The notes under the pieces were generated by a model. The model ran no database searches. It was not told where the DNA came from and worked only from the letters and a program-made list of their open reading frames with translations. The translations under genes and the position numbers were made by a program. From Prochlorococcus sp. AG-436-C14 (GTDB lineage Bacteria; Cyanobacteriota; Cyanobacteriia; PCC-6307; Cyanobiaceae), in contig QCPD01000014.1 of assembly GCA_003209755.1 (NCBI GenBank), forward strand, positions 1 through 41,842: a stretch of 41,842 nt of DNA. Reading direction: 5' to 3'. This document shows positions 25,170-39,245 of this stretch, in pieces (within the stretch, counting starts at the first letter, position 1; each line of letters begins with the position of its first letter).

Positions 25170-25440
25170 TTTGTGTAATCACATAAGGTGTTCAACTGGA
25201 TTTTTAGATAGATTAAATTTTCCTTAACACACTTGTCTTTTTTCTATCAATTAACAGATTTAGAACTTTTTACTCAATTGAGAAGATTTTTTATTAATCG
25301 TTTTTAAACCTTTAAAGTTACCTTTCAGAAGTTTTTGGTAAGAACAGACTTTTTACTAACAAATTCCTTCAAATAAAAAAGTTTTCCACAGCAAAGCGTC
25401 TCTAAATAAATCAATGTTCTAGAAAACAAGCAATTCCAAT

Positions 25441-25473
25441 AAAAAAGACCCTAGGTATGGTGTCCTACGGGTC
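25441..25473 (-). terminator. intrinsic terminator of element copy A
   Basis: On the minus strand, GACCCGTAGG-ACACCATA-CCTAGGGTC (one bulged base) is followed by TTTTTTATT. The same hairpin is present on the plus strand at 39033-39064. Confidence 0.85.
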
Positions 25474-25649
25474 TGGGTGATGGGGATACTATTTCTAACC
25501 CTATTTTCCGTATAAATCAACCCCCCCCCTACAGATGGTGTTCATTTAAGTCTGAGTTAAATATATGGTGGTTTTTTGTTGCCTATTCTGATTGATTTGA
25601 TTATTATTTTTTAAAGCTGGGTGATGGGGATCCTTCAGCAGATTATTTT

Positions 25650-25675
25650 GCCCTCATGAGATGAGGGCTTTTTTA
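25650..25675 (+). terminator. intrinsic terminator at the inner edge of element copy A
   Basis: GCCCTCATGAGATGAGGGC followed by TTTTTT on the plus strand. With the terminator at 25441 it closes the element on both sides in outward orientation. Confidence 0.85.
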
Positions 25676-25876
25676 TTGATTTTTTTAGAGTCGTGAGGAG
25701 TTTAGTCGTTTAATTGTTTTTTCAATTAGCCTTTCTATCCCTGAAATACTCATTGTGTTTGGGCACCTCTCATCTTCAACTTTTGGTATTGGAGGTGACA
25801 CATATTAGATGTTTTAAAATATATGACTTGCAATACCTATTATTTATTGCTAGTACATGTGTACTGCTAGCAATAA

Positions 25877-26077
25877 ATGACTCCATCCGCTTCCCCGTAT
25901 GCTGTTTTTAAGGCTGAAGAATGGGTACCTCCGGTAGCCCAACCTATTGGCATTGGTCAATGTCTACGCCTGACCCCAAAAAAACTTGCACCAATCAGAT
26001 CTTCGATCAAGAAGAAGAGTTGTAATTCCTTGAGAAAGGAATTCTCAAAAAAATATGTTCAGCTTGCGTTCGCATGA
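25877..26077 (+). CDS. possible small basic protein
   Basis: A 66-codon frame from ATG 25877 ('MTPSASPYAVFKAEEWVPPV') with a basic middle ('LTPKKLAPIRSSIKKKS') and end. It overlaps another frame (26055-26246). No family recognised; composition is plausible but not convincing. Confidence 0.3.
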   Translation: MTPSASPYAVFKAEEWVPPVAQPIGIGQCLRLTPKKLAPIRSSIKKKSCNSLRKEFSKKYVQLAFA

Positions 26078-26515
26078 CATGTCAACATTTTCATTATTCC
26101 AGCGACAAACATTGCAGAACACTTCTTTCATATCATGTTCACGTCGTCTTATTCCTCATGGATGTCATTTGATTTCACGTTGTCATCTTTGGGAGCTGCA
26201 ACAAGAGAGAGATTGGTTGGTGTTCAGAGGTAGACTGACACCTTGAATAGATCAACTTGTTTATAAGATTTTTAATACTATCTTTGATCAGTGTATGAGC
26301 TTTATGAACTTTATTGACGAGCGTTGTCTTTGTATTGGTTTTTGGCTTTTCTTTCACCCACTAGATATGGCTTTATAGTCAAGATTGAATTATTTTAAGG
26401 TGTCATTTTATGTGATATTGATAGATATATTATAATTTAGTAGTCGATTAACCATTGACTATTGAATTAAATACCCTATATGTGATAGATGTATTAAGAA
26501 AGTAATTATTGAGTT
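26078..26515. other. intergenic region with a doubtful open frame
   Basis: A plus-strand frame at 26055-26246 is rich in Cys, His and Arg ('SCSRRLIPHGCHLISRCHLW') and could be a small metal-binding protein, but it has no supporting signal. Upstream of the histone-like gene, a TATTATAAT sequence near 26428-26436 may be a promoter -10 element. Confidence 0.3.
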
Positions 26516-27034
26516 ATGTCTCAGTTATCCATCAAAGTTAGTGCTAAAGGTGATGCCTTGATCGCTACCTTGCAAAAGGAGATCTTTAACAGACGTCGTA
26601 AGAAGGTTACTGCTTCTCAAGTCGTTGAAACCCTTGTTGAAAGCGGTGCTAAATCTCAGTCTGATAAACGTTACGCAGCTTCTTGGAAAAACCTAATTAA
26701 AGATATCGAAAAAGCAGCTAAAGTTTCTGAAGTTCATGGGAATAAGCCAGCAAATATTAGCGCTGATGAATGGGCTTTAATTCTTTCTCATCGCACACGT
26801 AAAGGCTCTGCTCCAAAAGCTGCTGCAGCTAAAAAAACTACAGCTAAAAAAGCTGTCGCAAAAAAAACAGTTGCTAAAAAGGCAACAGCAAAGAAAGTTG
26901 TAGCTAAAAAGCCAGTAGCGAAAAAGGCTGCAGCCAAAGCTAAAACTGAGGCTTCTGCAGTTGTAAAGCCGAGTGCTGGTAGGCCTGCTAGGCGTGCACG
27001 TAAAGCGAGAAAAGCACCTGAAGCTGCTAAATAA
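26516..27034 (+). CDS. histone-H1-like DNA-binding protein, copy 2
   Basis: A 172 aa paralogue of 15520-16107. The N-terminal 97 residues differ at only a handful of conservative positions (for example 'GDALIATLQKEI' against 'GEAMIATLQKEI'), while codons differ widely. The tail is shorter but follows the same pattern of AKK(T/A) repeats and ends with 'AGRPARRARKARKAPEAAK', an AT-hook-like motif. Two divergent promoters regions (no 16 bp hairpin here) suggest different regulation. It probably coats or bends DNA, possibly with copy 1 as a partner. Confidence 0.85.
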   Translation: MSQLSIKVSAKGDALIATLQKEIFNRRRKKVTASQVVETLVESGAKSQSDKRYAASWKNLIKDIEKAAKVSEVHGNKPANISADEWALILSHRTRKGSAPKAAAAKKTTAKKAVAKKTVAKKATAKKVVAKKPVAKKAAAKAKTEASAVVKPSAGRPARRARKARKAPEAAK

Positions 27035-27041
27035 GGCTTTC

Positions 27042-27093
27042 CCAGACCGTCAGGCGGCATGAGAGGTTCAATGCCTCTCACTGGTGTTTTTTT
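27042..27093 (+). terminator. structured terminator after the histone-like gene, copy 2
   Basis: Outer stem CCAG/CTGG enclosing CCG-TCAGG-CGG and GAGAGG-TTCAATG-CCTCTC, followed by TGTTTTTTT. It has the same plan as 16114-16162, with compensating changes in the last hairpin (GAAAAG/CTTTTC there). Here a T tract makes it a likely terminator. Confidence 0.7.
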
Positions 27094-27146
27094 AGATATC
27101 TTGGAAATATTTGTCTTGATATGTCTGTTAAGCTAGGCCTCTTTAT

Positions 27147-27443
27147 TTAATCAGTAATTATTAATCCTGCGTTGCACAGAGCATTAAATACTTTTGTTTT
27201 ACGCTCCATTGGTTTTTTTGTTGGGTGAAGCATATCAAGTATGGACGCAATACAACTTATTTCATAGGAGCCTTGGGAAATGAGAGCTGCATCACATATT
27301 TTATTATTAGAGATAACAGGTTTTATGCTAGTGAATTTCAATTTCTGAATAGATGCCTTTAAAACTTGTTCGAGATATTCTAGTTGTTCGTTATTTAATG
27401 TCTTTCTGTCTACATAATCCATTAAAACTAATGAGGGTGTCAC
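27147..27443 (-). CDS. EGSSW-family small protein, member 2 (diverged)
   Basis: A 98 aa relative of 18284 and 30505. Helical N-terminus ('LNNEQLEYLEQVLKASIQKL'), then 'NKICDAALISQGSYEISC' where the usual EGSSW has become QGSYE, 'IASILDMLHPTKKPMERK' and 'KVFNALCNAG'. ATG 27443 or the internal ATG 27422 (MDYVDRK) may start it; the second gives a start like the 30505 member's. Function unknown. Confidence 0.7.
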   Translation of the reverse strand: MTPSLVLMDYVDRKTLNNEQLEYLEQVLKASIQKLKFTSIKPVISNNKICDAALISQGSYEISCIASILDMLHPTKKPMERKTKVFNALCNAGLIITD

Positions 27444-27515
27444 TACGAAATTAATAAAAATCTAATTTAACCGCTTTCTAGGAATAATTATGAACTCTTT
27501 GGATTTTTCTATCTT

Positions 27516-27731
27516 TTAGGTGTCTTTCTTATTCATATCAGCTTTATATGCATTGAGAGCCTCTTTGATTCTTCCTGGAGCAAAAGGATTTTTACCTTTT
27601 GCCTCTTTCTTGGCTTCTTGCCATGCATTGTCGATTTCTTTCTTTGCTATCGGATCGTTATTGAAATTTGTGTATAGCTTCATCAGATACCAAGTGCTTA
27701 AAACTAAAAGTCCTAGACCTAATAAATACAT
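27516..27731 (-). CDS. single-helix membrane protein (71 aa)
   Basis: An N-terminal membrane helix ('LLGLGLLVLSTWYLMKLY') is followed by a charged helical tail ('EIDNAWQEAKKEAKG', 'GRIKEALNAYKADMNKKD'). The topology suggests a cytoplasmic or stromal-side helical domain tethered to the membrane. No family recognised. Confidence 0.6.
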   Translation of the reverse strand: MYLLGLGLLVLSTWYLMKLYTNFNNDPIAKKEIDNAWQEAKKEAKGKNPFAPGRIKEALNAYKADMNKKDT

Positions 27732-27811
27732 TAGACTGTCTCGATAATTACGACAATCTAACCAATTGAAGGGAATTTGCGCCTATAAATAAAAAAAAAT
27801 ACGTTTGCGCT

Positions 27812-27967
27812 ATGCCACTTATCGTAGATCCTTCTAAAGATACTAGTAATGGGGTTGGTAAGATTTTTAGAACAATCAATATCACACTTGCCATTGCACT
27901 ACCTTTTTCCGCAATTTTGGTAACTATCTTTTGGGGTTTAAAACATGGTTTCAGTAGTTTTATTTAA
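27812..27967 (+). CDS. single-helix membrane protein (51 aa)
   Basis: ATG 27812 to TAA 27967. A polar start ('MPLIVDPSKDTSNGVGKIF') and a membrane helix ('LAIALPFSAILVTIFWG') near the C-terminus, as in small subunits of photosynthetic complexes, though I cannot match it to one. It is divergent from the gene at 27516. Confidence 0.55.
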   Translation: MPLIVDPSKDTSNGVGKIFRTINITLAIALPFSAILVTIFWGLKHGFSSFI

Positions 27968-27988
27968 TTTCAATATAGAAATAATTTT

Positions 27989-28147
27989 TTATCCAAATAC
28001 AGTTTTAATGAGTTCAATAAATAATTTGATACTCCAAAATAAGATGCCTCCATAAATAAAGCCTGCCAGACCAGAAGCCCAGTCATTGTAAAATTTCCAG
28101 GAAATGATTATCACGAGGATTCCAAGTAAGAGTGAATATGTAGCCAT
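27989..28147 (-). CDS. small two-helix membrane protein (52 aa)
   Basis: ATG 28147 to TAA 27989. 'MATYSLLLGILVIIISWKFY' and 'GLAGFIYGGILFWSIKLF' make two short hydrophobic segments. It is convergent with 27812-27967. Family not recognised. Confidence 0.55.
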   Translation of the reverse strand: MATYSLLLGILVIIISWKFYNDWASGLAGFIYGGILFWSIKLFIELIKTVFG

Positions 28148-28324
28148 TGTGTTGTTGTCCCCTTCAATAGACGCTTTATGTAAAAGTTTAGAGGTCGGTA
28201 TACCTAACTTTTAAGTAGTAGCAACCGAAGTGAGTTGTATTTACCGAATTAACTTCTACGGTATGCCTCATCCCTAACCAAATTAATTTAGGACAGAGTA
28301 GTTGTGTACTCCGAAATAAAAGTT

Positions 28325-28591
28325 ATGTACACTTCAATCTTCGACTCTTTTTTCTCCGATTCTTTATTTGCGCCTACCAGAACTGTTTATGTGGTTTCTG
28401 ATAGCCAGCTTGAAGAGCTTAAGCGTAATCAACGTCAAGAGGAACTCGACAACATCGAGGACTCTAGAAAAAGATTAGAAGAAAGTTATCAAGCTCGTAT
28501 TAAAGTTCTTGATGAACGTCAAAATGAGATAAAAGAGGAACTTAAGACTTTGTATCCCACAAAGGTTAAGGCTGTCCTAAATAAGAAATAA
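28325..28591 (+). CDS. small coiled-coil protein (88 aa)
   Basis: The frame opens with a GTG at 28304, but ATG 28325 (MYTSIFDSFFSDSL) is the better start. The first 30 residues are hydrophobic/aromatic ('APTRTVYVVSDSQLEELK') and the rest is a long charged helix ('RKRLEESYQARIKVLDER', 'NEIKEELKTLYP') likely to form a coiled coil. I recall phage and picocyanobacterial genes of this type but cannot name a family. Terminator follows 31 bp later. Confidence 0.65.
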   Translation: MYTSIFDSFFSDSLFAPTRTVYVVSDSQLEELKRNQRQEELDNIEDSRKRLEESYQARIKVLDERQNEIKEELKTLYPTKVKAVLNKK

Positions 28592-28622
28592 CTGTAGTTG
28601 GTCTGAAGAATGTGTTTCTTAG

Positions 28623-28654
28623 CTCCTCCACTATATTAAGTGGAGGAGTTTTTT
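28623..28654 (+). terminator. intrinsic terminator
   Basis: CTCCTCCACT-ATATTA-AGTGGAGGAG followed by TTTTTT, a perfect 10 bp stem, ends the coiled-coil gene. Confidence 0.92.
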
Positions 28655-28720
28655 ATTAATTTAATTCGCTTCCTTGGAAAAATTCCTTTATATCTAGGCC
28701 TAGTGAAAAGCTGTAGTTCT

Positions 28721-28846
28721 CTAGTTCTTTATTTGGCTTTCTTTAAGTGCCTTATTTCCTTCTTTAAGGGTTGTGCTGACCCACCAAACTGTAATTCCTG
28801 TAATTACAATGCCTAATGTCATTATTGATATTATTGTTGAAGTCAC
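28721..28846 (-). CDS. single-helix membrane peptide (41 aa)
   Basis: GTG 28846 gives 'MTSTIISIMTLGIVITGITV', with 'WWVSTTLKEGNKALKESQ' after it; an internal ATG nine codons in is possible. One membrane helix, then a polar tail. Family unknown. Confidence 0.45.
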   Translation of the reverse strand: MTSTIISIMTLGIVITGITVWWVSTTLKEGNKALKESQIKN

Positions 28847-29039
28847 AGGAAAGTATCATTAGTTGTATTCATAATCATTATCTGGATAAGGCACATAATA
28901 AAATTTATAAAACGGTTTTTCGAGATTGATAACTTAATAAATTATGCTTTTAATAAAATTTAAAAGAAAGATAAGGATAAATGCACTTGCAATAGGGCTT
29001 ATTGATGGTTTATACCGATAATAATTGAAGAGGAAAACA

Positions 29040-29201
29040 ATGAAACTTCAAACTTCATTTAGTGTCCCCAGAGAAAATATGGGTGACATAGGTAGAAAAC
29101 ACGAGGCCGTCAAAAGAGGAATGACAGCGATCGCTTCATACTGGGAGAGAGAGTGTGCTTTAAATCCTTCCTCACCTGCATGTCTGATTTTTGAGGACTA
29201 G
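29040..29201 (+). CDS. CP12-like mini-protein (C-terminal module only)
   Basis: A 53 aa product preceded by GAAGAGG. It ends 'RECALNPSSPACLIFED', matching the CP12 C-terminal Cys loop (C-x3-P-x4-C-x2-[YF]-E-D) even more closely than its paralogue at 11945 ('CSINPSSPGCLLFND'). The helix before it ('HEAVKRGMTAIASYWE') fits the GAPDH-facing helix of CP12. The PRK-binding N-terminal half is absent, so it could compete with full-length CP12 for GAPDH. That role is inference. Confidence 0.75.
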   Translation: MKLQTSFSVPRENMGDIGRKHEAVKRGMTAIASYWERECALNPSSPACLIFED

Positions 29202-29263
29202 TAGTTGAAAGTACATAAGGAAATATTCTTTCCTTGAGCAAATAGTTAATCTTTTACTTCTCA

Positions 29264-29524
29264 ATGATAAGTGTTATAAAAACTTGGTTTGGATTTTTTC
29301 TTTCCCTATTTTTAGTAATTAGTGTTTGCTTCCAGTCAGTTGAAGCGCAGCTGGTGTTAAATACATCTGAAGTTGTTATTGAAAATGATCAAGGCTCAAT
29401 GGATACAAAAAGTATTGATGATCTTTTAGGCCCAGATATAAATTTTCCATTTGATCCAGCAAATCATAGAGACGGGTCTAATCCGATCAAAAGAATTGGC
29501 AAAATAAGCGACGATAATTTGTAA
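29264..29524 (+). CDS. secreted acidic peptide, FPF-motif family
   Basis: The 86 aa product has a clear signal peptide ('GFFLSLFLVISVCFQSVEA', cleavage after VEA) and an acidic mature part ending in 'DDLLGPDINFPFDPANHRDG' and a basic-neutral tail. 'NFPFDP' aligns with 'AFPFIPG' and 'VFPFPPG' of the exported proteins at 37969 and 32653. Export to periplasm, lumen or outside is expected; function unknown. Confidence 0.65.
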   Translation: MISVIKTWFGFFLSLFLVISVCFQSVEAQLVLNTSEVVIENDQGSMDTKSIDDLLGPDINFPFDPANHRDGSNPIKRIGKISDDNL

Positions 29525-29536
29525 GTAAGTATCTTT

Positions 29537-29743
29537 CTATTTTCTAAGCAAAAGTTCTAAACGTTTTTTTTGTTCTTCAAGAGATTGGGCTTTTTCATTT
29601 CTTTTTTCCTCCATTCTATTTTTTATTGACTCATCAGCTTGTCTTGCGATACTTGCCTTCCTAAGGAATACAAGGATTGATATTACAGCAAATACAAATG
29701 CTAGAGAACCCAATGGAACTATTGTTGCGTTCATTTCTTCCAT
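29537..29743 (-). CDS. single-helix membrane protein with coiled-coil tail (68 aa)
   Basis: N-terminal membrane helix ('PLGSLAFVFAVISILVFL') and a long charged helix ('ESIKNRMEEKRNEKAQSLEE', 'QKKRLELLLRK'). Its ATG overlaps the stop of the upstream gene (TAATG), so the two are translationally coupled. Function unknown. Confidence 0.65.
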   Translation of the reverse strand: MEEMNATIVPLGSLAFVFAVISILVFLRKASIARQADESIKNRMEEKRNEKAQSLEEQKKRLELLLRK

Positions 29744-29907
29744 TAGTAATTACATGCGTTATATAAACGATTAGCTTTCTGCTGATCCTCACATTTTTTT
29801 AGTTTCGTCTCTAATTCTTCCATCTCTTTTTGTGCCTGATTGATTAATTCCAATGACCATTGCCAGTTTCGCTCATTGCAATGTTGTTTCGCAGAATCCC
29901 AGTCCAT
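29743..29907 (-). CDS. small helical protein with three Cys (54 aa)
   Basis: ATG 29907. 'MDWDSAKQHCNERNWQWSLE' is followed by a charged helix ('AQKEMEELETKLKKCEDQ') and ends 'ANRLYNACNY'. The cysteines at both ends could bridge a helical hairpin. Coupled by TAATG to the membrane coiled-coil protein at 29537, its likely partner. Confidence 0.6.
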   Translation of the reverse strand: MDWDSAKQHCNERNWQWSLELINQAQKEMEELETKLKKCEDQQKANRLYNACNY

Positions 29908-30117
29908 GTTTGGATTACTTTAATAATGGATGATTTAGTCGAGAAGAACTCTTTATGACTCATAGAGAATAACAAGCTTATGAACTAAATATTGTGTTTT
30001 TATCTTCTTTTTGAAAACTTTTTTTTAATGAGCTTTTGGGCTTATCAATTCACACCTAACTTTTAATCCTCATTTTGACTCTGCCTCACTTAGGCTCGAG
30101 ATATAATTATTTATTCC

Positions 30118-30528
30118 ATGGAAACAGCTTTTGCTTGGAGCCTTTGCCTGTCTGCCGTTGTTGTTTTGCTTTCAATTGGGCCTCTAACTTATGGCCGAGT
30201 CAAAGCTGGATATTCGGCGGAGAATATGAGTGCTCCAAGGGCTTTGTTTGATGAGCTTCCAGATTTTGGTAAAAGAGCTGTTTGGTGCCATCAAAATTGC
30301 TGGGAGAGCATAACTCTTCACGCTCCTGCGTGTTTACTATGTCTGATTACCGGTGTTGTCTCCCCTGTGGCAGTGATAGCTGCGTGGGTTCACCCATTCG
30401 TGAGGTTTATTTATATCGGTGCTTATGTTGGTGATATTCCTCCTGCTAGAGGACTTTGTTGGGCATCGGGTCTTATATGTTCAACTCTATTGTATAAAGA
30501 GGGCTTAACTGCTTTGCTTTCTTCTTAA
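30118..30528 (+). CDS. MAPEG family membrane protein
   Basis: MAPEG proteins are four-helix trimeric membrane proteins (glutathione transferase-like in eukaryotes). The 136 aa product has the right length and topology and the family features 'NMSAPRALFDELPDFGKRAV' (aPR..f) and 'WCHQNCWESITLHAPACLL' (A-x-H-x-N-x-x-E near helix 2), plus 'VRFIYIGAYVGDIPPARGL' (R-x-x-Y-x-x-x-Y). The bacterial role is unknown, possibly lipid peroxide detoxification. The start ATG 30118 overlaps no neighbour; the 3' end overlaps the convergent gene by 24 bp. Confidence 0.85.
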   Translation: METAFAWSLCLSAVVVLLSIGPLTYGRVKAGYSAENMSAPRALFDELPDFGKRAVWCHQNCWESITLHAPACLLCLITGVVSPVAVIAAWVHPFVRFIYIGAYVGDIPPARGLCWASGLICSTLLYKEGLTALLSS

Positions 30529-30786
30529 TTGATCTACGACTAAACCTCTTGGCTTGCCAGCTTTAACAGGATTTAATCTATCAAGTACAACTGCAACTGC
30601 TTTAAACCAAGAACTTCCCTCTGGAATATTAATTTGATTACAAATATGTTTTGGAGCTAGTTCAAGGGAGAGATTCGTATCTATTTCATTGATTACCTGT
30701 TGATAATGTTTTTCTAAAAGCTCAATATCCTCTTTCTCGAGAATGTTGCCTGAACAATACCAATCTAGTGATGTTTTCCAATCCAT
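30505..30786 (-). CDS. EGSSW-family small protein, member 3
   Basis: This 93 aa protein has the family core: 'LAPKHICNQINIPEGSSWFK', 'AVAVVLDRLNPVKAGKPRG' and a C-terminal 'VVDQLRR' helix. It begins 'MDWKTSLDWYCSGNILEKED'. It lies 15 bp downstream of the LOG gene on the same strand, so it is probably cotranscribed with it. Function unknown. Confidence 0.75.
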   Translation of the reverse strand: MDWKTSLDWYCSGNILEKEDIELLEKHYQQVINEIDTNLSLELAPKHICNQINIPEGSSWFKAVAVVLDRLNPVKAGKPRGLVVDQLRRKQSS

Positions 30787-30801
30787 TATCTGATAATACG
30801 T

Positions 30802-31650
30802 CTATTGTTTGATAATGCCCCATGCTTCTGAAGCACTATCGGCGTATTGAAAGAGATTCATATGTTCATCTGAAATGAGCCCATAATCAGAAAGGAATTG
30901 AAAGTTGATCACTTTCGACCAATAATCTCGACCAAATAGAATTATTGGAATTTGTGTTTTCATTCCTGTTTGACGAAGAGTCAGTAATTCAAATAGTTCA
31001 TCAAATGTTCCAAATCCACCTGGGAAAAACACTGCTGCAACTGATCTCATTACAAAATGAAATTTTCTTAAGGCAAAGTAATTAAATTTAAAGCAAAGTC
31101 CAGGCGTGATATATGAATTGGGATGTTGTTCGTTTGGAAGGCTTATATTTAAACCTATGGATTTACAGTCGGCATCAAAAGCGCCTCGATTAGCAGCTTC
31201 CATAATCCCTGGGCCGCCACCAGTGACAATTACATGTGAATTGCAGTGTTCTTTTTGGTTTTGTCTGGAGATAATCTTTGCGAATTCTCTGGCCGAGTCG
31301 TAGTAATGAGATATCGAATGTAAATTCTTTAGACGTGTTATTTCTCTCTGTAAATTAGATGAGCTCGGGTCTTTGTTGAGAGAGTTCTTAGCTAGTTCAA
31401 GTCTGTTCTCTATAGAGCTTTTATTGGAAAGATTGGCACCTCCAAAGACTATGATTGTTGATAATATGTTTTGCTCTTCTAGGATCTTTTCTGGTTTACT
31501 GATTTCCAGGAGCATTCGTACTCCTCTCATTTCATCACTATTAATTAACTCTCTATCTTCATGGGCTAATTGGTAGTTGCTGGAACTAATAATTAATTCA
31601 AGATTTTTTCTGACTAGCTCTCGGTTGTCACTTCTATTTTGAGTACTCAT
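30802..31650 (-). CDS. LOG family protein (TIGR00730-like)
   Basis: LOG proteins hydrolyse nucleoside 5'-monophosphates such as cytokinin ribotides. The 282 aa product has the two signatures: 'VIVTGGGPGIMEAANRGA' and 'FPGGFGTFDELFELLTLRQT' (PGGxGTxxE). The extra N-terminal region of about 60 residues and 'STIIVFGGANLSNK' (first strand) mark the longer type II-like form. Substrate unknown. The bases after ATG 31650 ('MSTQNRSDNRELVRKN') look like a genuine start. Confidence 0.9.
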   Translation of the reverse strand: MSTQNRSDNRELVRKNLELIISSSNYQLAHEDRELINSDEMRGVRMLLEISKPEKILEEQNILSTIIVFGGANLSNKSSIENRLELAKNSLNKDPSSSNLQREITRLKNLHSISHYYDSAREFAKIISRQNQKEHCNSHVIVTGGGPGIMEAANRGAFDADCKSIGLNISLPNEQHPNSYITPGLCFKFNYFALRKFHFVMRSVAAVFFPGGFGTFDELFELLTLRQTGMKTQIPIILFGRDYWSKVINFQFLSDYGLISDEHMNLFQYADSASEAWGIIKQ

Positions 31651-31743
31651 CAGAATATGCCTCCATAAGATTTAATGCTTTAAACAATTAGAACTGTTCA
31701 TACATTCACTTGAAATGAATAATGAATAGGCTGATGCCATTGT

Positions 31744-32898: not shown

Positions 32899-33024
32899 AT
32901 ACCTATGCTCTCATTACTTAGGCTAATGCTTGATCAGAAGCTTGATTAGCTTTAGGACTTGTAAAAATACCTTTTGGATTGTCCTAATTAGATTGAGGCT
33001 TTTTTTTCTTATTGGAAACTGATT

Positions 33025-33159: not shown

Positions 33160-33263
33160 AGCTTTGCGGCTAATTTTCTACGACCTTAACCTCTATTTTG
33201 TTTTTTTGTTGATGAGGAGTGCTTTCTTTCTGGTTAAATTGTCGAAACTTAATTTGATTACTA

Positions 33264-33356
33264 ATGGAAGAATTAGCCAAAAGAGTGGAAGAACTTGAGC
33301 GTCGAGTCCAGCATTTAGAAGAAGTGCTGAAATACCAAGCAAGAAAAAACAAATGA
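33264..33356 (+). CDS. coiled-coil mini-protein (30 aa)
   Basis: ATG 33264: 'MEELAKRVEELERRVQHLEE' continuing 'VLKYQARKNK'. Perfect heptad pattern with L/V at a and d positions, so a parallel coiled-coil dimer or trimer is likely. Too short for most gene finders. Very similar Prochlorococcus peptides come to mind, but I cannot verify them. Confidence 0.6.
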   Translation: MEELAKRVEELERRVQHLEEVLKYQARKNK

Positions 33357-33369
33357 TCTCTGTAGCCAT

Positions 33370-33573
33370 CTAACCAATACCTGGTATATCAAAAGGGAGT
33401 TTGTCTTCAAGTACTACTAAGTATTTTTGGACTGCTGGAATTCGTAGTAGAGCTAATGGAACAACAATATTCAGAACAATCCATGCTCCTCCAACTAATG
33501 GAGCCCATTTACCAGCTTTTTTAATAAAGCTCATTCCCTTTTCTTTCTCTGAAGACTGATTCATGTTTTTCAT
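33370..33573 (-). CDS. single-helix membrane protein ending in PFDIPGIG (67 aa)
   Basis: A basic start ('MKNMNQSSEKEKGMSFIKKA'), one membrane segment ('GGAWIVLNIVVPLALLRIP') and the ending 'VVLEDKLPFDIPGIG'. The C-terminal PF-x-x-PG-x-G resembles the endings of the exported FPF-family proteins. Its start codon touches the 591 bp repeat (33572-34162), which therefore supplies its promoter and leader. Confidence 0.65.
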   Translation of the reverse strand: MKNMNQSSEKEKGMSFIKKAGKWAPLVGGAWIVLNIVVPLALLRIPAVQKYLVVLEDKLPFDIPGIG

Positions 33574-34162
33574 TTATTGATTAGATCTTAGCTAGACCCA
33601 AACTTATTATTTTCGATCAGGTGAAGTGGAAATGCAATGGGCATTAAGGCTGATTGCGTTGAGGTGCGAATAGAGCAAAGATAAGTTTGTTGAGCTCAGA
33701 GGCACCATTGATGGTCGACACTCCACCTGAGTATTTAAGAGAAGCGAACTGAATTCTGGTTCCTGCTCCAACATTCTCAATGAATAAGTAGGCTATTCGT
33801 CTGATGCGACAAGGATCAATGATATAGGTGCGTCAATTCAGTCGAAACTCCTCTGCATCGTTTAGGTGCCCTAACGGAGTCAAAAAGCCTTTCTACTAGA
33901 CACTTGGCCCCAGGCCACCAATATCCAGAAGCTTCCAAAGAATCGGTAAAGGAAAAGGGCCCCCTGAGGCCCTTTTTAAATGTCTAATTGGATGTGATTA
34001 TTCTTTCTACGGTTTCCCTACCTAAGACGTACGGTCCTACAGAACCATTGAAGAAAAGGAAAAATTAGGATTGGTGTACGTCAGGCAATCAATTGCACTG
34101 GTCATCGATTGATTGGCTTCTGGGGAGGAGCACTGACGTTTTTTATTCAAAGAAACAACCTT
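33572..34162. repeat. 591 bp direct repeat, copy 1
   Basis: Identical base for base to 41252-41842, offset 7680 bp. The GC content is clearly higher than in the flanks. It contains a strong plus-strand terminator (33953-33977) and several short inverted repeats, but no frame with a good start. The repeat border sits at the start codon of 33370-33573 in this copy, and at four bases from the start of 40903-41247 in the other. An RNA gene or mobile promoter unit are the main options. Confidence 0.85.
33953..33977 (+). terminator. intrinsic terminator inside the repeat, copy 1
   Basis: AAAAGGGCC-CCCTGA-GGCCCTTTTT: 9 bp stem, 6-base loop and T5. It would end a plus-strand transcript from the left part of the repeat; the near-palindrome could also work on the minus strand. 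Confidence 0.88.
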
Positions 34163-34280
34163 CTAAAGCTCAGTATAAAAAGAAGGTTGACCTGAGAAGT
34201 TCAAAAAATATAAGAACAAACCACTATCAGCCGTGTAAGAATAATTACTCAAAACATCTATTTTTTATTTTCTCTAAAGA

Positions 34281-34511
34281 TTAGTTGCCATCGCAATCTT
34301 CATCTTTTGGCAACTGAAGCCATCCACTCGTCCACTTTGAGTATGTTTTTAATTCAGACCATGGAACTCTTATAAGAATTTCGTTGTTGTTAACGGGAAA
34401 AAGTTCTACCCACCGTTCATCTTTTTTTCCTCCATAGCTTTTAACTTCAAAATGTCGATAACCTTCTCTTTTTACTGCTGAGGTCCAAGCTGCATTCGGT
34501 GGCCATCTCAT
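34281..34511 (-). CDS. small Trp-rich protein, TIGR02450-like
   Basis: The 76 aa product matches the small Trp-rich conserved family TIGR02450: 'AAWTSAVKREGYRHFEVKSY' (W-T...HF), 'ERWVELFPVNNNEILIRVPW' and 'SELKTYSKWTSGW' (W-x-E-L...S-K-W...G-W). The usual 'E-K-H-F' has become 'Y-R-H-F'. Function unknown. Start ATG 34511 (MRWPPNAAWTS). Confidence 0.75.
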   Translation of the reverse strand: MRWPPNAAWTSAVKREGYRHFEVKSYGGKKDERWVELFPVNNNEILIRVPWSELKTYSKWTSGWLQLPKDEDCDGN

Positions 34512-34842
34512 CTTCTTTCTTTGTAGAGGTATTAATTAGCACTTATAAAATTTTAGTTGATATTTTCTCTAATATCTTTAAGTAGTTTTATTTCTCCATA
34601 CCTATATTTAATCCATTAATAATCCAACTGCTGATATCTGTTTCCGGATTTCATGGTTTGGATATTGATCGAAATAATAACCCATGCAAAAAATAATTGA
34701 GCAAGTAAAAACCACTGTTCTAATTGATTTTTTACGAAAATTAACTTGCATACTGGATTTAGCGATCAAGCCATATTAAGACATCAACTCTAATTGATAT
34801 GTAATTCAAAGTTTGTTCATCCTTGAGGTTAATTACCTGTCT
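34512..34842. other. intergenic region, one doubtful small frame
   Basis: Contains a 31-codon plus-strand frame at 34684-34779 ('MQKIIEQVKTTVLIDFLRKL') without support. Otherwise AT-rich; it precedes the decayed response regulator gene and would have held its promoter. Confidence 0.3.
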
Positions 34843-35572
34843 ATGAATCCATTCAAGTCAAGAATTTTAATTATTGAAGTCAATAAAAGTATTCGTGAAA
34901 CACTCCGTGAAGTCCTTGTTTCAGAGGGCTATGAAGTCGAAGCTTCTAAGGCTGGTGATGAAGCTCAGATAAGAATTTTACTCAGTTCGACACAAGCAAA
35001 AAGAATGATTTAGTTTTTTAGACTTGATGTTACCCAACCTGAGTGGGATAGAGCTTTGTAGAAGAGTCCGAAAAAACAAAATAAAATTCCAATTCTTATT
35101 GTCAGTGCAAAAGACAGCGAATCAGACCGTGTATTGGGTTTAGAAATTGGTGCCGACGATTATTTGATAAAGCCATTTGAAGTAAATGAATTAATTGTTA
35201 TGTATCGTGCAATTTTAGAAGGTATGAAACTAATCATTTCAAACTCAATATTCTTCTCAAGTCCTTAGCTTTAAAAATATATCCTTATATAAACAGGAAT
35301 ACCGGGTCACTAAAAACAATAAGGAAATAAATCTTGCCCCAAAGGAATACAAAATCATGCAATGGTTTCTGCAGAATCCTAAGCGGGTGTTGCTTGTTAT
35401 CAACTTTTAGAACTAATTTGGAGGGTTTATGTGGGAGATTCTAAAACTGTAGTGAAACATTAGGTGGATTAGAAATAAGATAGAGGAAGATGCAGTGGCT
35501 TCAAACTATATAAAAATTGTTAGAGGTTTTGGCTAAAAATTTGGGCAATGGCGGTATATATTACAAAATATT
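34843..35572 (+). pseudogene. decayed OmpR/PhoB-type response regulator
   Basis: The receiver domain is recognisable: 'SRILIIEVNKSIRETLREVL' (the acidic pair expected here has become E-V-N), 'EGYEVEASKAGDEAQ', then stop codons at the phospho-Asp strand, where 'LDVTQPEWDRAL' stands for 'LDVMLPG.DG'. '[20 protein letters not shown]' and '[18 protein letters not shown]' are still clean. A frameshift near 35220 leads to the DNA-binding domain: 'EYRVTKNNKEINLAPKEYKI', then remnants of the winged helix ending 'VRGFG' TAA 'KFG'. At least four stops and frameshifts. In marine cyanobacteria such a regulator next to a sensor kinase is usually PhoB; that identity is inference. Confidence 0.85.
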
Positions 35573-35644
35573 TAAAAATCTATTTAGTTAATAAAAACGA
35601 TTCTAATTATCAGAAAAGTTGGAACGACCACAAAGAATTTTTAA

Positions 35645-35845
35645 CAATGGTTAAATCGTCAACAAGAAGTTGATGTCTCTCAACTTTTAAATTGGAACGA
35701 TGATATTAATCAGAGTAGGATTATTATTACGTCTAAGAACAAAATCATCTATATCAATAAGCAAGCTATGAAATTATTGTCTATTAAAAAGGATTCAAAA
35801 ATATTATGGAAATCCCTCTTTAAACTCATAATCCCAGACGAGTAA
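35645..35845 (+). pseudogene. remnant of a PhoR-like sensor kinase
   Basis: An in-frame fragment between stops: 'QWLNRQQEVDVSQLLNWNDD', 'RIIITSKNKIIYINKQAMKL' and 'LSIKKDSKILWKSL', ending at TAA 35843. The 'RIIIT..N.IIY.NK.A..LL.I' segment is a PAS-like sensor sequence of PhoR-type kinases. No H-box, N-box or G-box follow, so the kinase core was deleted. Its place just after the response regulator remnant supports a lost phoB-phoR pair. Confidence 0.6.
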
Positions 35846-36016
35846 AAGAGAACTTCAAGAGCTTTATAGCGCAAAGACATTTAAAAGTAATCCTTAGATT
35901 TAGCTTTATTCAGAATTGTTCTAATAATTTTAAGTTAATTATTCCAACTAGTTATCAATGGATATCTTTTATGCTCTGATAGTTATCATATTCTTATAAA
36001 ATCAAGATTGTTTCAT

Positions 36017-36175
36017 ATGAGCAAGAAAATCTCCAAGAAAGCCAGTGCTATTAGAACAATTTCTCTAGCGGTTGGTTCTCTTAGTCTTCTCGTTATTGCT
36101 GTTTCTCAAATTACAGGCAATGAGGCCTGCACAAGTAATGTTTATTTAATTGAAAATCAAATAAGACTTTCATGA
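36017..36175 (+). CDS. single-helix membrane protein (52 aa)
   Basis: ATG 36017 to TGA 36175. A basic N-terminus ('MSKKISKKASAIRTIS') and one membrane helix ('LAVGSLSLLVIAVSQITG'), then an external 'NEACTSNVYLIENQ' with one Cys. It may be an anchored or exported peptide. It follows the two-component remnants. Family not recognised. Confidence 0.5.
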   Translation: MSKKISKKASAIRTISLAVGSLSLLVIAVSQITGNEACTSNVYLIENQIRLS

Positions 36176-36395
36176 TTTTATTTTCAATCTGAATATTAAA
36201 GAACCTGATTTTTTTAGGTGAATTTTTCAAGAGATATTTTTTTTATATTTTGATCATTTTGGGATCTTATTCAATTGTTGGATATTTTTACAACTTCAAT
36301 TTGTGTTACATATGCATTGTTTAACGTGTTGCTACTGCTTATTTGGTCAAGACTCCCATCTCACTAACCTTCATTCATCCCGACATTTAAATAAA

Positions 36396-36533
36396 TTATT
36401 CTAGGTCTAGTGAAAAATCGGCTAGATCCATTATTTTTTTAAATTCGTCCATCTCCTCATCCGAAACACCTGTTTTCTTCTGAAGTTCTTTTAATAAAAC
36501 ATCTATTTTTCTTTTGATATTTTCTTCGCTCAA
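36396..36533 (-). CDS. small acidic helical protein (45 aa, TTG start)
   Basis: TTG 36533 start: 'MSEENIKRKIDVLLKELQKK', then 'TGVSDEEMDEFKKIMDLADF'. Two amphipathic helices, soluble. No ATG is available before the conserved-looking part. Family unknown. Confidence 0.45.
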   Translation of the reverse strand: MSEENIKRKIDVLLKELQKKTGVSDEEMDEFKKIMDLADFSLDLE

Positions 36534-36639
36534 AATTTTTTATTAATTACATAAGTAAGTATATATTCAATTCACCCAAACCTGTTTAAAAACGACAAAT
36601 TTTTGTTGTCAATTAGTACTTATTATTTTGGTAGTCAAT

Positions 36640-36816
36640 TCAGGCCTGTGCTCCATCTGCTACACGCATCGTCATTCCTCCATCCATGTCATCATCATCG
36701 TTGTTGTCGATTATTGCCTTTCCAACCTCATAAAGAAGATAAGTCCCAACAATAATTAGAACGAAAAGGAAATTAAAATCTCCTGAGTTTGAAGCGTATG
36801 TTTGAATTTCACCCAT
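36640..36816 (-). CDS. one-helix membrane protein with Asp run and GG (58 aa)
   Basis: Good Shine-Dalgarno (GAGGA) before ATG 36816. The membrane helix ('FNFLFVLIIVGTYLLYEVG') is followed by 'KAIIDNNDDDDMDGGMTMRV' and a short tail. The helix, Asp run, GG(G)-M order matches 33025 and 39246. Two bases separate it from the upstream broken gene at 36819. Confidence 0.65.
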   Translation of the reverse strand: MGEIQTYASNSGDFNFLFVLIIVGTYLLYEVGKAIIDNNDDDDMDGGMTMRVADGAQA

Positions 36817-36818
36817 AA

Positions 36819-36995
36819 TTATCCTCTGTTAAACAACCCTCTTCTCTTTTGTTGTGGCTTAGCTGCTCTAGTTCCACGAGACTGCTGCATTTCAGCTTTA
36901 GTAATTGGCTTACGATTTTGGAAAGTATCCCAACCAAGTAAAGCCACAGTTCAAATGGCTCCAAAGAAAAGAACTACACCTGGTATTAAATCCAT
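36819..36995 (-). pseudogene. membrane protein with an internal TGA at codon 15
   Basis: The 58-codon frame starts 'MDLIPGVVLFFGAI', meets TGA (36951-36953) in the middle of the membrane helix, and continues cleanly with 'TVALLGWDTFQNRKPITKAE' and a basic tail 'KPQQKRRGLFNRG' to TAA. TGG to TGA is the obvious change. A downstream start is unlikely because the helix would be cut. Directly upstream of 36640-36816, likely in one transcript. Confidence 0.65.
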
Positions 36996-37160
36996 CTAGT
37001 TGAATTAAGTTCAACAAAGTTAGTGGAATTGTTATTTAGACCGTGGATAAAAAATATTGCTTCAGCTAATACCCCTGATAACTTTTGCTGTGTACGGGTG
37101 CCCCCTTTACATTCCTTTACTTTTCCTTTACATTCATGGCCATTATTTGAGTTTAATCTC

Positions 37161-37268
37161 GTGACTCCAGAAGCAGAAAAGTTTAATGGTTGGATGGCAA
37201 TGATCGGCTTTATTGCTGCTTTCGGTGCTTACGCAACAACAGGTCAAATCATTCCAGGTATTTTTTAG
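37161..37268 (+). CDS. high-light-inducible protein (Hli), short form
   Basis: Hli proteins are single-helix relatives of plant light-harvesting proteins that bind chlorophyll and carotenoid and protect photosystem assembly under stress. The 35 aa product from GTG 37161 begins '(V)TPEAEKFNGWMAMIGFIAA' and ends 'TTGQIIPGIF'; the chlorophyll-binding motif is E-x-x-N-G-x-x-A-M-x-G-F. The frame is open further upstream, but the codons before GTG are not Hli-like and known short Hli proteins start at this point. Eight bases upstream of the second hli. Confidence 0.9.
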   Translation: MTPEAEKFNGWMAMIGFIAAFGAYATTGQIIPGIF

Positions 37269-37276
37269 GTTCTTAT

Positions 37277-37573
37277 ATGACTTCTAGTAACCCAGTTTCT
37301 GATCAATCAATAGATCCAACTGATAATCAATCAGAAGGTCAATCTGTTGATCCAACAGGAATCCCTGCTTACAGTTCTGCTTCTAACCAGATCATTACTG
37401 AATATGGCAAGCAAAACATGTTTGCTACCCAAGTACAAACTCAATTAGTTGAAAACTATTCCAACTACCCTGAGGAAGCAGAAAAGACCAATGGCCGTTG
37501 GGCAATGATTGGAATGATTGCTTTACTTGGCGCTTATATCACTACTGGTCAAATTATTCCTGGCATATTTTAA
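37277..37573 (+). CDS. high-light-inducible protein (Hli), long form
   Basis: A 98 aa Hli with a 60-residue soluble N-terminal extension ('DQSIDPTDNQSEGQSVDPTG', 'QNMFATQVQTQLVENYSNYP') and the chlorophyll-binding helix at the end: 'EEAEKTNGRWAMIGMIALLG' then 'AYITTGQIIPGIF'. Its last residues are the same as those of the upstream short Hli, showing tandem duplication of the helix. The N-terminal extension is Ser/Asp/Gln-rich and probably disordered. The pair probably forms one transcript induced by light stress. Confidence 0.93.
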   Translation: MTSSNPVSDQSIDPTDNQSEGQSVDPTGIPAYSSASNQIITEYGKQNMFATQVQTQLVENYSNYPEEAEKTNGRWAMIGMIALLGAYITTGQIIPGIF

Positions 37574-37605
37574 ATAGCTTTAGACAGATCAATCTTCATA
37601 TAAAT

Positions 37606-37713
37606 CTAGAGATTTTTCTCTAGAATTTTTTGTTCCATTTGAGCATTTAATCCATTTTTTCCAGTTTTTGCAAAATAAAAATTTAAATAAGCAAAAAATG
37701 CCAAATCAATCAT
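37606..37713 (-). CDS. small hypothetical peptide (35 aa)
   Basis: ATG 37713: 'MIDLAFFAYLNFYFAKTGKN' and 'GLNAQMEQKILEKNL'. Short aromatic N-terminus and a polar helical tail. It is convergent with the hli pair. Not recognised. Confidence 0.4.
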   Translation of the reverse strand: MIDLAFFAYLNFYFAKTGKNGLNAQMEQKILEKNL

Positions 37714-37762
37714 GTTAGGAATAGTTCCCCAATAATCTCACCTTGTCCAAGCAAATTAATTC

Positions 37763-37867
37763 TTAGGAAATACGATCACTGATCATCCTTATCAATGGCG
37801 CAATTGACCCTATTGCAAGCACTGCAAACATAACAAAAATGATTATTTTTGATTCCCATTTTTCCAT
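37763..37867 (-). CDS. single-helix membrane peptide (34 aa)
   Basis: ATG 37867: 'MEKWESKIIIFVMFAVLAIG' and 'SIAPLIRMISDRIS'. One membrane helix with charged ends on both sides. Size and composition fit subunits of photosynthetic complexes, but no match is known to me. Confidence 0.5.
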   Translation of the reverse strand: MEKWESKIIIFVMFAVLAIGSIAPLIRMISDRIS

Positions 37868-37968
37868 GAAAATGGTTTAGCTAATTACCACTTATATCTG
37901 TGGATTTTTTATAGCTTTCGAAAAAATTAGTAATTTATTATCAATCAATACTTTCAATAAAAAGATAA

Positions 37969-38229
37969 TCAGTCTTTACCGGAATTTTTACCAAAACCTG
38001 GAATAAAAGGAAATGCTTGATCATCTCCAAGGTCTGGGGCAGCACTAGTTTTCGAACCATCCAAGGCATCACTCGACTCTTCGATCACAATACCCATAGA
38101 GTTGTCTTCATTCATATTAGATCCCATTTGCGCCGCCACTACAGGGTTGATTCCTGAAAAGATAGTTGTTGAGGCTAAAAAAACAGACAAAGCTAAAAAA
38201 CTGGCAGCCCTAAATATCTTTTTGAGCAT
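37969..38229 (-). CDS. secreted acidic peptide, FPF-motif family
   Basis: The 86 aa product has a signal peptide ('SFLALSVFLASTTIFSGINP', then VVAA; cleavage after VAA) and an acidic mature part ('NMNEDNSMGIVIEESSDALD') that ends 'LGDDQAFPFIPGFGKNSGKD'. The end motif GD(D/E)Q-x-FPF-x-PG-x-G is shared with 32653-32898. Export is certain by pattern; the role is unknown. Confidence 0.75.
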   Translation of the reverse strand: MLKKIFRAASFLALSVFLASTTIFSGINPVVAAQMGSNMNEDNSMGIVIEESSDALDGSKTSAAPDLGDDQAFPFIPGFGKNSGKD

Positions 38230-38311
38230 GAATACAAATCAGTTATATACAATCTAACGTCGGTATTCACCCAAACGTGTTAGGTCTGAATACTCAATTA
38301 ATGAGAATCAG

Positions 38312-38392
38312 TTAGATAATAGGAGTCGTAGCAATTGTTGAAACTTCTGAGAAGATAGCAACAGCCATGAATATGTAAGGAACTAATTTCAT
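38312..38392 (-). CDS. possible membrane mini-peptide (26 aa)
   Basis: ATG 38392: 'MKLVPYIFMAVAIFSEVSTI' then 'ATTPII'. One short membrane helix. It is similar in size to tiny photosystem or cytochrome b6f subunits, with no clear match. Low support. Confidence 0.3.
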   Translation of the reverse strand: MKLVPYIFMAVAIFSEVSTIATTPII

Positions 38393-38519
38393 TGTTTTTG
38401 TGAATATGTATTAAGCATATATGCTCATCATCTAATCAGTGGTAGCTGATTGTACGGATCTCGCCCCAACGACCATAAGCAAATTTGTTTGTGGCTATAA
38501 AAATATCTGATAACCAATA

Positions 38520-38732
38520 TCAATTGCTATCACTGTTTTGTTGGATCGCTTTTTTTGCAAGATTTTCTAATTGATCAGGTGAAACTGGTGTCGTTTTGTT
38601 TTTTCCTTCTTTTAATCCTCTCAGTAAAGAAGTAATTATTGCCAGTCCTAAAAATGCACCTAACCCCAACCAAAAAATTCTCTCTACTAAGAGTGCTGTG
38701 GGATTACCAATTGCATCAGTTACTTGTTCCAT
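38520..38732 (-). CDS. single-helix membrane protein (70 aa)
   Basis: The membrane segment ('IFWLGLGAFLGLAIITSLL') lies in the middle, followed by a basic region ('RGLKEGKNKTTPVSPDQLEN') and a soluble helix ('LAKKAIQQNSDSN'). Start ATG 38732. Family unknown. Confidence 0.6.
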   Translation of the reverse strand: MEQVTDAIGNPTALLVERIFWLGLGAFLGLAIITSLLRGLKEGKNKTTPVSPDQLENLAKKAIQQNSDSN

Positions 38733-38823
38733 CTTCTCGATTTAAAAAAAAAATTATCAGAGCAGTTTTTCACTAATTTTGCCTTAATCCATCTTAGAAA
38801 TTATGTGCAAAAATTCATGGCAT

Positions 38824-38846
38824 AAAAAAACCCTCAAATTTGAGGG
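38824..38846 (-). terminator. intrinsic terminator at the inner edge of element copy B
   Basis: On the minus strand, CCCTCAAATTTGAGGG (a perfect palindrome) is followed by TTTTTTT. It mirrors the terminator at 25650-25675 of copy A. Confidence 0.85.
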
Positions 38847-39032
38847 AGATGATACTGAGAGATCCCCATCACCCAGTAATTTGAAAATACTACTCGCTGT
38901 ATACCTATTACGCAAGCTAATCATTCCAGATATGGGTCATTTTTTCTGTTTTTTTAATCTTTCTAACACCAGATATGGTAGGGGTTGCAATTTGGTTGAA
39001 AAACAGTTAAAAATAAGATCCCCATCACCCAG

Positions 39033-39064
39033 GCCCGTAGGACACCATACCTAGGGTCTTTTTT
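39033..39064 (+). terminator. intrinsic terminator of element copy B
   Basis: GCCCGTAGG-ACACCATA-CCTAGGGTC then TTTTTTATT. The same hairpin as at 25441-25473, differing by one base in the stem. Confidence 0.85.
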
Positions 39065-39245
39065 ATTGGAATTGCTTTTTATTTAGATCTTGGAGTTATT
39101 TAGTAACTCTGAGGCTGTGGAAAACTTAGACCGCTTGAAGTAATTTTTTTACAGAAGGATCGTTTAGATAAACATTCACTTCGTGCTAACCGTTACACTA
39201 AATATTTTTAGATCAGTTAGGTTTGTTCAAACAATTTTCTGATAC

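What the first reader, a model, noticed from the sequence alone, without database searches (positions are those of the whole stretch)
25376..39124. Two inverted copies of an unknown non-coding element frame a 13.7 kb accessory segment
At 25376-25676 (minus) and 38824-39124 (plus) there is the same ordered set: outward terminator, GATCCCCATCACCCAG, 130-140 nt spacer with a G tract, the same 15-16 mer again, then a near-identical hairpin terminator, TTATTGGAATTGC and TGTGGAAAAC. No coding frame fits. The conserved borders and diverged spacer suggest a functional RNA pair, or end units of an island. Recombination between them would invert the segment, which holds the Hli pair, decayed PhoBR and secreted peptides.
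Basis: partly seen in the sequence, partly recalled or inferred. Interest (0 to 1): 0.8.

Follow-up and report, generated by a model that had tools for sequence, protein, structure and literature searches.

The report
Divergent small RNAs targeting sigma mRNA
The two matching non-coding pieces look like copies of a small-RNA gene, kept across Prochlorococcus and related marine cyanobacteria, whose conserved stretch is antisense to the start site of one sigma-factor message and so probably controls how much of that switch protein is made.

Summary
Copies A (25376-25676, minus) and B (38824-39124, plus) belong to a multi-copy family absent from Rfam: a third copy lies in the same genome, 142 of 151 genomes of the high-light genus match, and weaker matches occur in marine Synechococcus. 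Each element has two same-orientation copies of TCCCCATCACCC; an outward terminator stands 5' of the first in 56 of 56 genus elements. The forward half looks like an 80-95 nt sRNA gene. Its 12-mer is exactly antisense to the predicted translation start of one sigma-70 gene downstream of ppk in 37 of 47 genomes; synonymous sites there are frozen. I infer translational repression of that sigma factor. The 5' motif, read on the other strand, copies the sigma start site, suggesting a divergent decoy RNA. A palindrome like those before nrdJ overlaps the predicted sRNA promoter, suggesting NrdR control. Segment orientation is constant in 16 of 16 informative genomes. MED4 copies do not overlap Yfr1-Yfr21. 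No transcript was seen here; Yfr22-27 and Yfr101-108 could not be compared in full.

The parts
25376..25676 (-). Copy A, whole element
   Evidence: 27 A-type copies aligned in the genus.
38824..39124 (+). Copy B, whole element
   Evidence: 21 B-type copies aligned.
25473..25487 (-). Seed (motif 2) of the predicted forward sRNA of copy A
   Evidence: antisense to the sigma start site.
39018..39032 (+). Seed (motif 2) of the predicted forward sRNA of copy B
   Evidence: antisense to the sigma start site.
25439..25530 (-). Predicted sRNA of copy A, G-tract to T-run; 5' end inferred
   Evidence: Conserved block; no transcript data.
38980..39064 (+). Predicted sRNA of copy B, G-tract to T-run; 5' end inferred
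   Evidence: Conserved block; no transcript data.
25441..25473 (-). Forward terminator hairpin and T-run of copy A
39032..39064 (+). Forward terminator hairpin and T-run of copy B
25526..25541 (-). NrdR-like palindrome over the predicted promoter of copy A (ACACCATCTGTAGGGG)
   Evidence: Score 14.8, just under the 99th percentile of the control (14.96).
38966..38981 (+). NrdR-like palindrome over the predicted promoter of copy B (ACACCAGATATGGTAG)
   Evidence: Score 7.4, just under the 95th percentile of the control (7.7).
25617..25631 (+). Motif 1 of copy A, read on the plus strand as a copy of the sigma start site (predicted decoy RNA)
   Evidence: followed on this strand by the terminator at 25650-25668.
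38862..38876 (-). Motif 1 of copy B, read on the minus strand as a copy of the sigma start site (predicted decoy RNA)
   Evidence: followed on this strand by the terminator at 38846-38831.
25650..25678 (+). Outward terminator of copy A (stem 25650-25668 and T-tail)
38824..38846 (-). Outward terminator of copy B (stem 38831-38846 and T-tail)

Best explanation
A and B are two copies of a multi-copy gene element of Prochlorococcus and its marine relatives that makes a trans-acting small RNA. From a promoter in the spacer an RNA of about 80-95 nt runs to the strong terminator; just before the hairpin it carries UCCCCAUCACCC(A/G)GGCC. This stretch is antisense to the Shine-Dalgarno/start-codon region (GGCCAGGGUGAUGGGGAU) of the mRNA of one sigma-70 (RpoD/SigA-type) factor encoded downstream of ppk, so the RNA should block ribosome loading and lower that sigma factor. 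The 5' motif copy belongs to a second, divergent RNA on the other strand, which ends at the outward terminator and carries the sigma start sequence itself; it would act as a decoy for the sRNA. Shown by computation: the family, its architecture, the antisense match, nucleotide-level constraint at the target. Inferred: transcription, repression, the decoy, and control by NrdR.
For: Conserved family. Exact 12-mer antisense match at the predicted start of the sigma gene in 15 of 18 genomes and 22 of 29 more. In the window's own genome the exact 12-mer occurs six times: five in the elements and once at the sigma start. Among 204 invariant degenerate residues of 31 orthologs only Gly2, Ile3 and Leu5 keep one codon, none of 200 columns after codon 8; Gly2 and two bases of Ile3 were fixed by how the set was chosen, Ile3's third base and Leu5 were not. 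Outward terminator 5' of motif 1 in 56 of 56 genus elements and 16 of 17 others against 66 of 2000 random stretches. Duplex gain with the start region for B -19.5, MIT9301-length genome -20.7, control mean -3.3, sd 4.3, n 397. Between-clade changes in seed flanks go with changes in the target (permutation p 0.008). Promoter palindrome at -50 to -55 from the seed core in 21 of 21, 19 of 21 at or above the control's 95th percentile.
Against: No transcript, no protein data. The sigma-70 promoter scan is at chance: one site in A (plus strand, 25579-25607, where the reverse RNA would need it; shuffles 1.1) and none in B (shuffles 1.6). sRNA folding is not more stable than shuffles (z -0.5 to -1.2), and in A and B the CCC(C) of the seed is predicted paired to the G-tract. 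Duplex gain is only -10.2 for A, -11.2 for the SS120-length and -13.8 for the MIT9313-length genome; one control 70-mer reached -53.5, probably from the element itself. Covariation is weak: mean gain 1.1 kcal/mol, own target best in 3 of 16, 12th or worse in 4 of 16. G044, G064 and G074 keep the exact sigma start without an R2 match at E<=0.1, although G074 has a motif pair with a terminator. Box spacing differs from nrdJ.
Confidence: 0.7

Rival explanations
1. One long forward RNA of about 230-250 nt with two seeds: hairpin, motif 1, spacer and motif 2 lie in one transcript, and the outward 'terminator' is its 5' stem-loop or the end of a neighbouring gene. The sigma target stays the same, but there is no decoy.
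For: Motif 1 and motif 2 have the same orientation; a long fold is possible; multi-seed sRNAs are known (general knowledge).
Against: The 5' hairpin is preceded by an A-tract in terminator fashion for the other strand, 56 of 56 genus and 16 of 17 other elements; sequence upstream of it is poorly conserved in A; the promoter palindrome lies between the motifs; motif 1 is missing in 5 of 5 main high-light copies.
Confidence: 0.2
2. The motif is a shared protein-binding or translation-start sequence: the elements carry copies of the sigma gene's start region that are bound by the same protein or make tiny MGI... peptides, without RNA-RNA pairing.
For: The reverse reading of motif 1 holds GTGATGGGGATC like the sigma start; the sigma start folds into a conserved hairpin in 13 of 13 sequences.
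Against: The forward unit has promoter box, seed and terminator in the antisense sense; seed flanks change with the target.
Confidence: 0.07
3. The copies are end units of a mobile or invertible island.
For: Outward inverted pair at a conserved place around a segment of variable length: 13.2 kb here; by the places about 16.3-16.9 kb in most, 18.1 kb in G014, 31.9 kb in G002, 42.6 kb in G010.
Against: Inside collinear with both flanks in 16 of 16 informative genomes; A and B are separate stable types (spacings 143-147 and 156-157); copies elsewhere.
Confidence: 0.03

Closest known systems
Yfr1/Yfr10 with Yfr2-5 (Cyano-1) of picocyanobacteria
   Same: Multi-copy sRNAs with a short conserved seed; one sRNA complementary to another that counteracts it (PMC6778093 passages).
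   Different: Other seeds and loci; here the complementary RNA is predicted from the same element on the other strand, and the target is a sigma start site. Rfam Cyano-1 and Yfr10 do not match these elements.
Yfr103
   Same: Multi-copy ncRNA present in NATL1A/2A, SS120, MIT9313 and marine Synechococcus, function unknown (PMC5069720 section 8).
   Different: Seven paralogs of 290-328 nt in CC9605, where R2 finds one copy at E<=0.1 (genome of that length). Sequence of Yfr103 not available to me, so not excluded.
sRNAs acting on sigma-factor mRNAs (DsrA, RprA, ArcZ, OxyS on rpoS)
   Same: Trans sRNA aimed at a sigma-factor 5' region (recalled).
   Different: Here the seed covers the start codon itself, pointing to repression; multi-copy; no relation in sequence was tested.
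NrdR-box promoters of ribonucleotide reductase genes
   Same: Palindromes like the double boxes before nrdJ in these genomes.
   Different: Spacing mostly 34 or 40-43 instead of 31-32; controls a non-coding RNA; no binding shown.

Membership tests
Rfam families (Yfr13, Yfr19, Yfr10, Cyano-1, Cyano-2) | Covariance-model match over the element | tested here: not met
   Window at gathering: only Glutamine-II, elsewhere. Element loci with lax thresholds: no known sRNA over the element above its gathering score; a sub-threshold Chlorobi-1 match (23.3 against 50 bits, E 0.015) lies on the other strand of one high-light copy, and four weaker ones in B. In the MED4-length genome Yfr13, Yfr19 and Yfr10 match exactly at their published places, not at these copies.
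Yfr1-Yfr21 of MED4 | Genome position | tested here: not met
   Copies at 348883-348973 (+), 772350-772450 (-), 936747-936842 (+) overlap none of the listed places.
Yfr103 | Copy number and length in CC9605 | tested here: inconclusive
   One R2 match against seven published paralogs; no sequence to compare.
Yfr22-27, Yfr101-108 | Sequence or position | not testable with these tools
   Source paper not held; supplements not available; name searches gave no coordinates.
RBS-blocking trans-acting sRNA | Conserved seed antisense to a Shine-Dalgarno/start region | tested here: met
RBS-blocking trans-acting sRNA | Expressed, and represses its target | not testable with these tools
   No RNA or protein data.
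sRNA decoy/sponge | Complementary RNA from its own transcription unit | tested here: inconclusive
   Terminator present; promoter scan at chance.
NrdR regulon | NrdR-type palindromes at the promoter | tested here: inconclusive
   19 of 21 at or above the 95th, 8 of 21 at or above the 99th percentile, but spacing differs from nrdJ and boxes were picked with a recalled consensus.
Invertible segment | Segment found in both orientations | tested here: not met
   One orientation in 16 of 16 informative genomes.

The most novel reading that the evidence does not exclude
A conserved three-part RNA switch, amplified to as many as nine copies per streamlined genome: NrdR, sensing DNA-precursor supply, sets a small RNA that shuts the start site of one alternative sigma factor, while a divergent decoy RNA from the same element, a copy of that start site, tunes or releases it. 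It would tie DNA synthesis to promoter choice in Prochlorococcus and marine Synechococcus.
Probability: 0.33. Interest if true: 0.87.

Novelty: new variant of a known kind. Interest (0 to 1): 0.72.

Why it matters
Prochlorococcus has few regulatory proteins; MED4 has five sigma factors (PMC6778093 passages). A widespread multi-copy RNA aimed at one sigma start site is a directly testable idea of how a streamlined cell chooses promoters, and it predicts a link between nucleotide supply and transcription in a very abundant photosynthetic group. The decoy inside the same element would be an unusual, compact form of sRNA titration. It also suggests that the sRNA catalogue of even model strains is incomplete.

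Tried and rejected
Invertible or mobile segment: contradicted by collinearity in 16 of 16 informative genomes. Coding element: the 83-aa frame over B is broken in 7 of 21 copies. Yfr13 and Yfr19, first suspected from length and distribution in Steglich 2008, rejected by coordinates in the MED4-length genome and by Rfam. Yfr103 judged unlikely by copy number, not excluded. Known phages: no blastn match to window 38955-39130 at E<=1 in 50,697 records. Other targets in the window's genome: of the four two-mismatch 15-mer sites, one is in copy C and three lie inside open frames (for one of these the start codon was not determined). Own folding of the sRNA is unimpressive.

Literature: ten searches listed no paper on this seed, on a sigma-targeting sRNA of this kind in Prochlorococcus, or on an NrdR-controlled sRNA in cyanobacteria; the library holds open-licence papers only. 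PMC7368042 predicts another sigma gene, sigD, as a target of a different sRNA, Yfr28. What I saw: passages of PMC7368042 and part 1 of 2 of its section 11; passages of PMC5069720 and its section 8; passages of PMC6778093; passages of PMC2518516 and its section 7; passages of PMC3898218 and PMC1242208; the rest as listings.

Recalled, not from any call: strain names attached to contig lengths (MED4 1657990, NATL2A 1842899, MIT9313 2410873, MIT9301 1641879, MIT9515 1704176, SS120 1751080, CC9605 2510659), the label high-light for genus g18, NrdR and DnaA consensus sequences, the rpoS sRNAs. That the window's genus is Prochlorococcus rests on record titles whose contig lengths equal those of genus genomes (AG-402-P18, 123638 = G014:C6; AG-402-O21, 88064 = G016:C7; list).
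Full report
The observation. Each has, in order: an outward terminator, motif 1, a spacer with a palindrome and a G-tract, motif 2, a strong hairpin with TTTTTTATTG, and further out TGTGGAAAAC. Rfam at gathering threshold finds nothing on them.

A family. With at most one mismatch the 15-mer occurs seven times in the window's own genome: four times in A and B, twice in a third copy C on another contig, and once at a sigma gene. In the genus 40 of 41 genomes match with at most one mismatch, against one control match in all 41. I aligned 27 A, 21 B and 8 C copies from the fetched loci, found by motif 2 and the terminator loop. A model from 15 sequences matches 110 of 300 genomes of the family at E<=0.01; a broader one from 22 sequences matches 136 of 300 at E<=0.05, 142 of 151 of the high-light genus and 0 of 11 genomes outside the family. 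Matching genomes have 1-9 matches. Marine Synechococcus-type genomes carry weaker matches (E from about 1e-6 up to 0.35) that mostly show seed and terminator, many with an upstream palindrome.

Architecture. The forward block shared from high-light to MIT9313-type genomes is ACACTA..TAGT, GGGG(G)TTG, a variable stretch, AAATA, TCCCCATCACCC(A/G)GGCCC, hairpin, T-run. Motif 1 recurs about 145-170 nt upstream in many clades, often as TGATCCCCATCACCCGGCC, after an A-tract and hairpin; it is missing in 5 of 5 main high-light copies but present in the second high-light type. A simple terminator test finds the outward terminator in 56 of 56 genus elements and 16 of 17 others, and a terminator in 66 of 2000 random stretches. 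The forward terminator is also found in 56 of 56, but the elements were collected by its loop, so that count is no evidence. Each element thus looks like two divergent units; the reverse RNA would carry GGCCGGGUGAUGGGGAUCA or the like.

The target. The one-mismatch site is the start of a 341-aa sigma factor (TIGR02997, 394.6 bits against a cut-off of 384.5), about 150 nt downstream of a polyphosphate kinase gene on the same strand. In 18 genomes where I sought the ortholog (12 with R1 matches and 6 without), 15 have the exact complement of the sRNA core at its predicted start. In 29 more, chosen because they had R1 or R2 matches, 22 do. The ten without it are seven g46 genomes, one g31 genome, G049 and G063. 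G049 and G063 also have no R2 match at E<=0.1. The g46 and g31 genomes have a start with one base fewer (GGGTGTGGGGA); weak R2 matches at E<=0.5 occur in 5 of 7 and 1 of 1. Against a clean co-distribution, G044, G064 and G074 keep the exact start without an R2 match at E<=0.1 (G044 and G064 match at E<=0.5, G074 does not, though it has a motif pair with a terminator). In this genome the pairing runs GAUCCCCAUCACCC, one mismatch, GGCC, from the Shine-Dalgarno edge into codon 3.

Constraint at the target. In 31 orthologs collected by GTGATGGGGAT, 204 residue columns are invariant and degenerate; only Gly2 (GGG), Ile3 (ATC) and Leu5 (CTG) keep a single codon, and none of the 200 columns after codon 8 does. 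The collecting string fixes Gly2's codon and two bases of Ile3; the third base of Ile3 and all of Leu5 are free, so two codons carry the argument. Leu5 lies just outside the sRNA match; it closes a hairpin that folds in 13 of 13 start regions. ATC and CTG are minority codons in the rest of the same gene in the MIT9301- and MIT9515-length genomes (ATC 2 and 4 of 20 Ile; CTG 1 of 36 and 2 of 35 Leu).

Does the sRNA track its target? Between clades, target GGGGAUC tends to go with sRNA (A/U)UCCCC, GGGGAC with GUCCCC, GGCU with AGCC and GGCC with GGCC; g5 and G295 fit less well. A permutation of 16 hand-picked pairs gives p 0.008, but the mean gain is 1.1 kcal/mol, 3 of 16 prefer their own target over all others, and 4 of 16 rank it 12th or worse. 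I treat this as supportive only. With full sRNAs, the duplex gain is -19.5 for B, -10.2 for A, -20.7, -13.8 and -11.2 for the MIT9301-, MIT9313- and SS120-length genomes; 397 control stretches average -3.3 (sd 4.3), one reaching -53.5, probably the element's own other strand.

Control. nrdJ promoters of these genomes carry a double palindrome. A matrix from 26 automatically picked boxes (two of 13 genomes mis-picked; picking used a recalled NrdR consensus) puts 19 of 21 sRNA promoters at or above the control's 95th and 8 of 21 at or above its 99th percentile; a box lies 50-55 nt upstream of the seed core in 21 of 21. The second-best box is 34 nt away in 6, 40-43 nt in 11, 30 nt in 2 and further in 2, while nrdJ boxes are 31-32 nt apart. 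NrdR control is plausible but unproven; window copy B scores just below the 95th percentile.

Orientation. Inside and both flanks are collinear in 15 single stretches and in G002, 16 of 16; G002 has a small inverted piece within its insertion, and G010 was uninformative.

Known or new. No Rfam family matches above threshold. The genome of MED4's length has three copies, none overlapping Yfr1-21; the coordinate frame is confirmed by exact Rfam hits for Yfr10, Yfr13 and Yfr19. Yfr103 has seven paralogs of about 300 nt in CC9605, where I find one copy. Yfr22-27 and Yfr101-108 could not be compared in full, so some copies may already have been seen as transcripts; I found no report of the sigma target, the divergent layout or the promoter box in the searches named under Tried and rejected.

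Verdict. A real, widespread element that most likely encodes regulatory RNA. Shown: family, architecture, antisense match, constraint at the target. Inferred: transcription, repression of the sigma factor, decoy function, NrdR input.

Noticed in passing
25381-25390 (-) and 39116-39125 (+): TGTGGAAAAC, like a cyanobacterial DnaA box (recalled TTTTCCACA), lies about 75 nt beyond each sRNA terminator; TGTGGAAAA occurs nowhere else in the window and only at A and B in each of six other fetched loci, L197-L202.
   Followed up: partly
41249-41842 and 33569-34162: 594 bp at the contig end repeat an inner stretch at 99.8% identity; NATL2A-length G002 and G026 also show this sequence to the right of B. 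A real duplication or an assembly edge.
   Followed up: partly
L009:1773-1955 (+): In copy C a 60-aa frame sits between an inner and an outer motif copy on the reverse strand; no Pfam or NCBIfam match.
   Followed up: partly
L461 (G245, CC9605-length genome): There the element lies between a Cyano-1 (Yfr2) and a Cyano-2 RNA match, a cluster of sRNA genes.
   Followed up: no
L462:8936-11706: A 12.7-kb contig of the viral collection carries a B-type element between an Hli-like gene and an alternative-oxidase-like gene: host capture by a phage, or a chimeric assembly.
   Followed up: no
25521-25530 (-): The G-tract of A-type copies varies by a few bases between strains, which could be phase variation or drift.
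   Followed up: no
15520-15819 and 26516-26815 (+): Two paralogous genes, 80% identical over 300 nt, with lysine/alanine-rich repeats; weak HC2 match for the second, below cut-off.
   Followed up: no
3503-3561 (+): Glutamine-II riboswitch; others lie near copy C and near a MIT9313-type element.
   Followed up: no
39541-40044 (+): Alternative oxidase (Pfam AOX) directly downstream of copy B; an Hli-like pair lies upstream (37023-37573).
   Followed up: no
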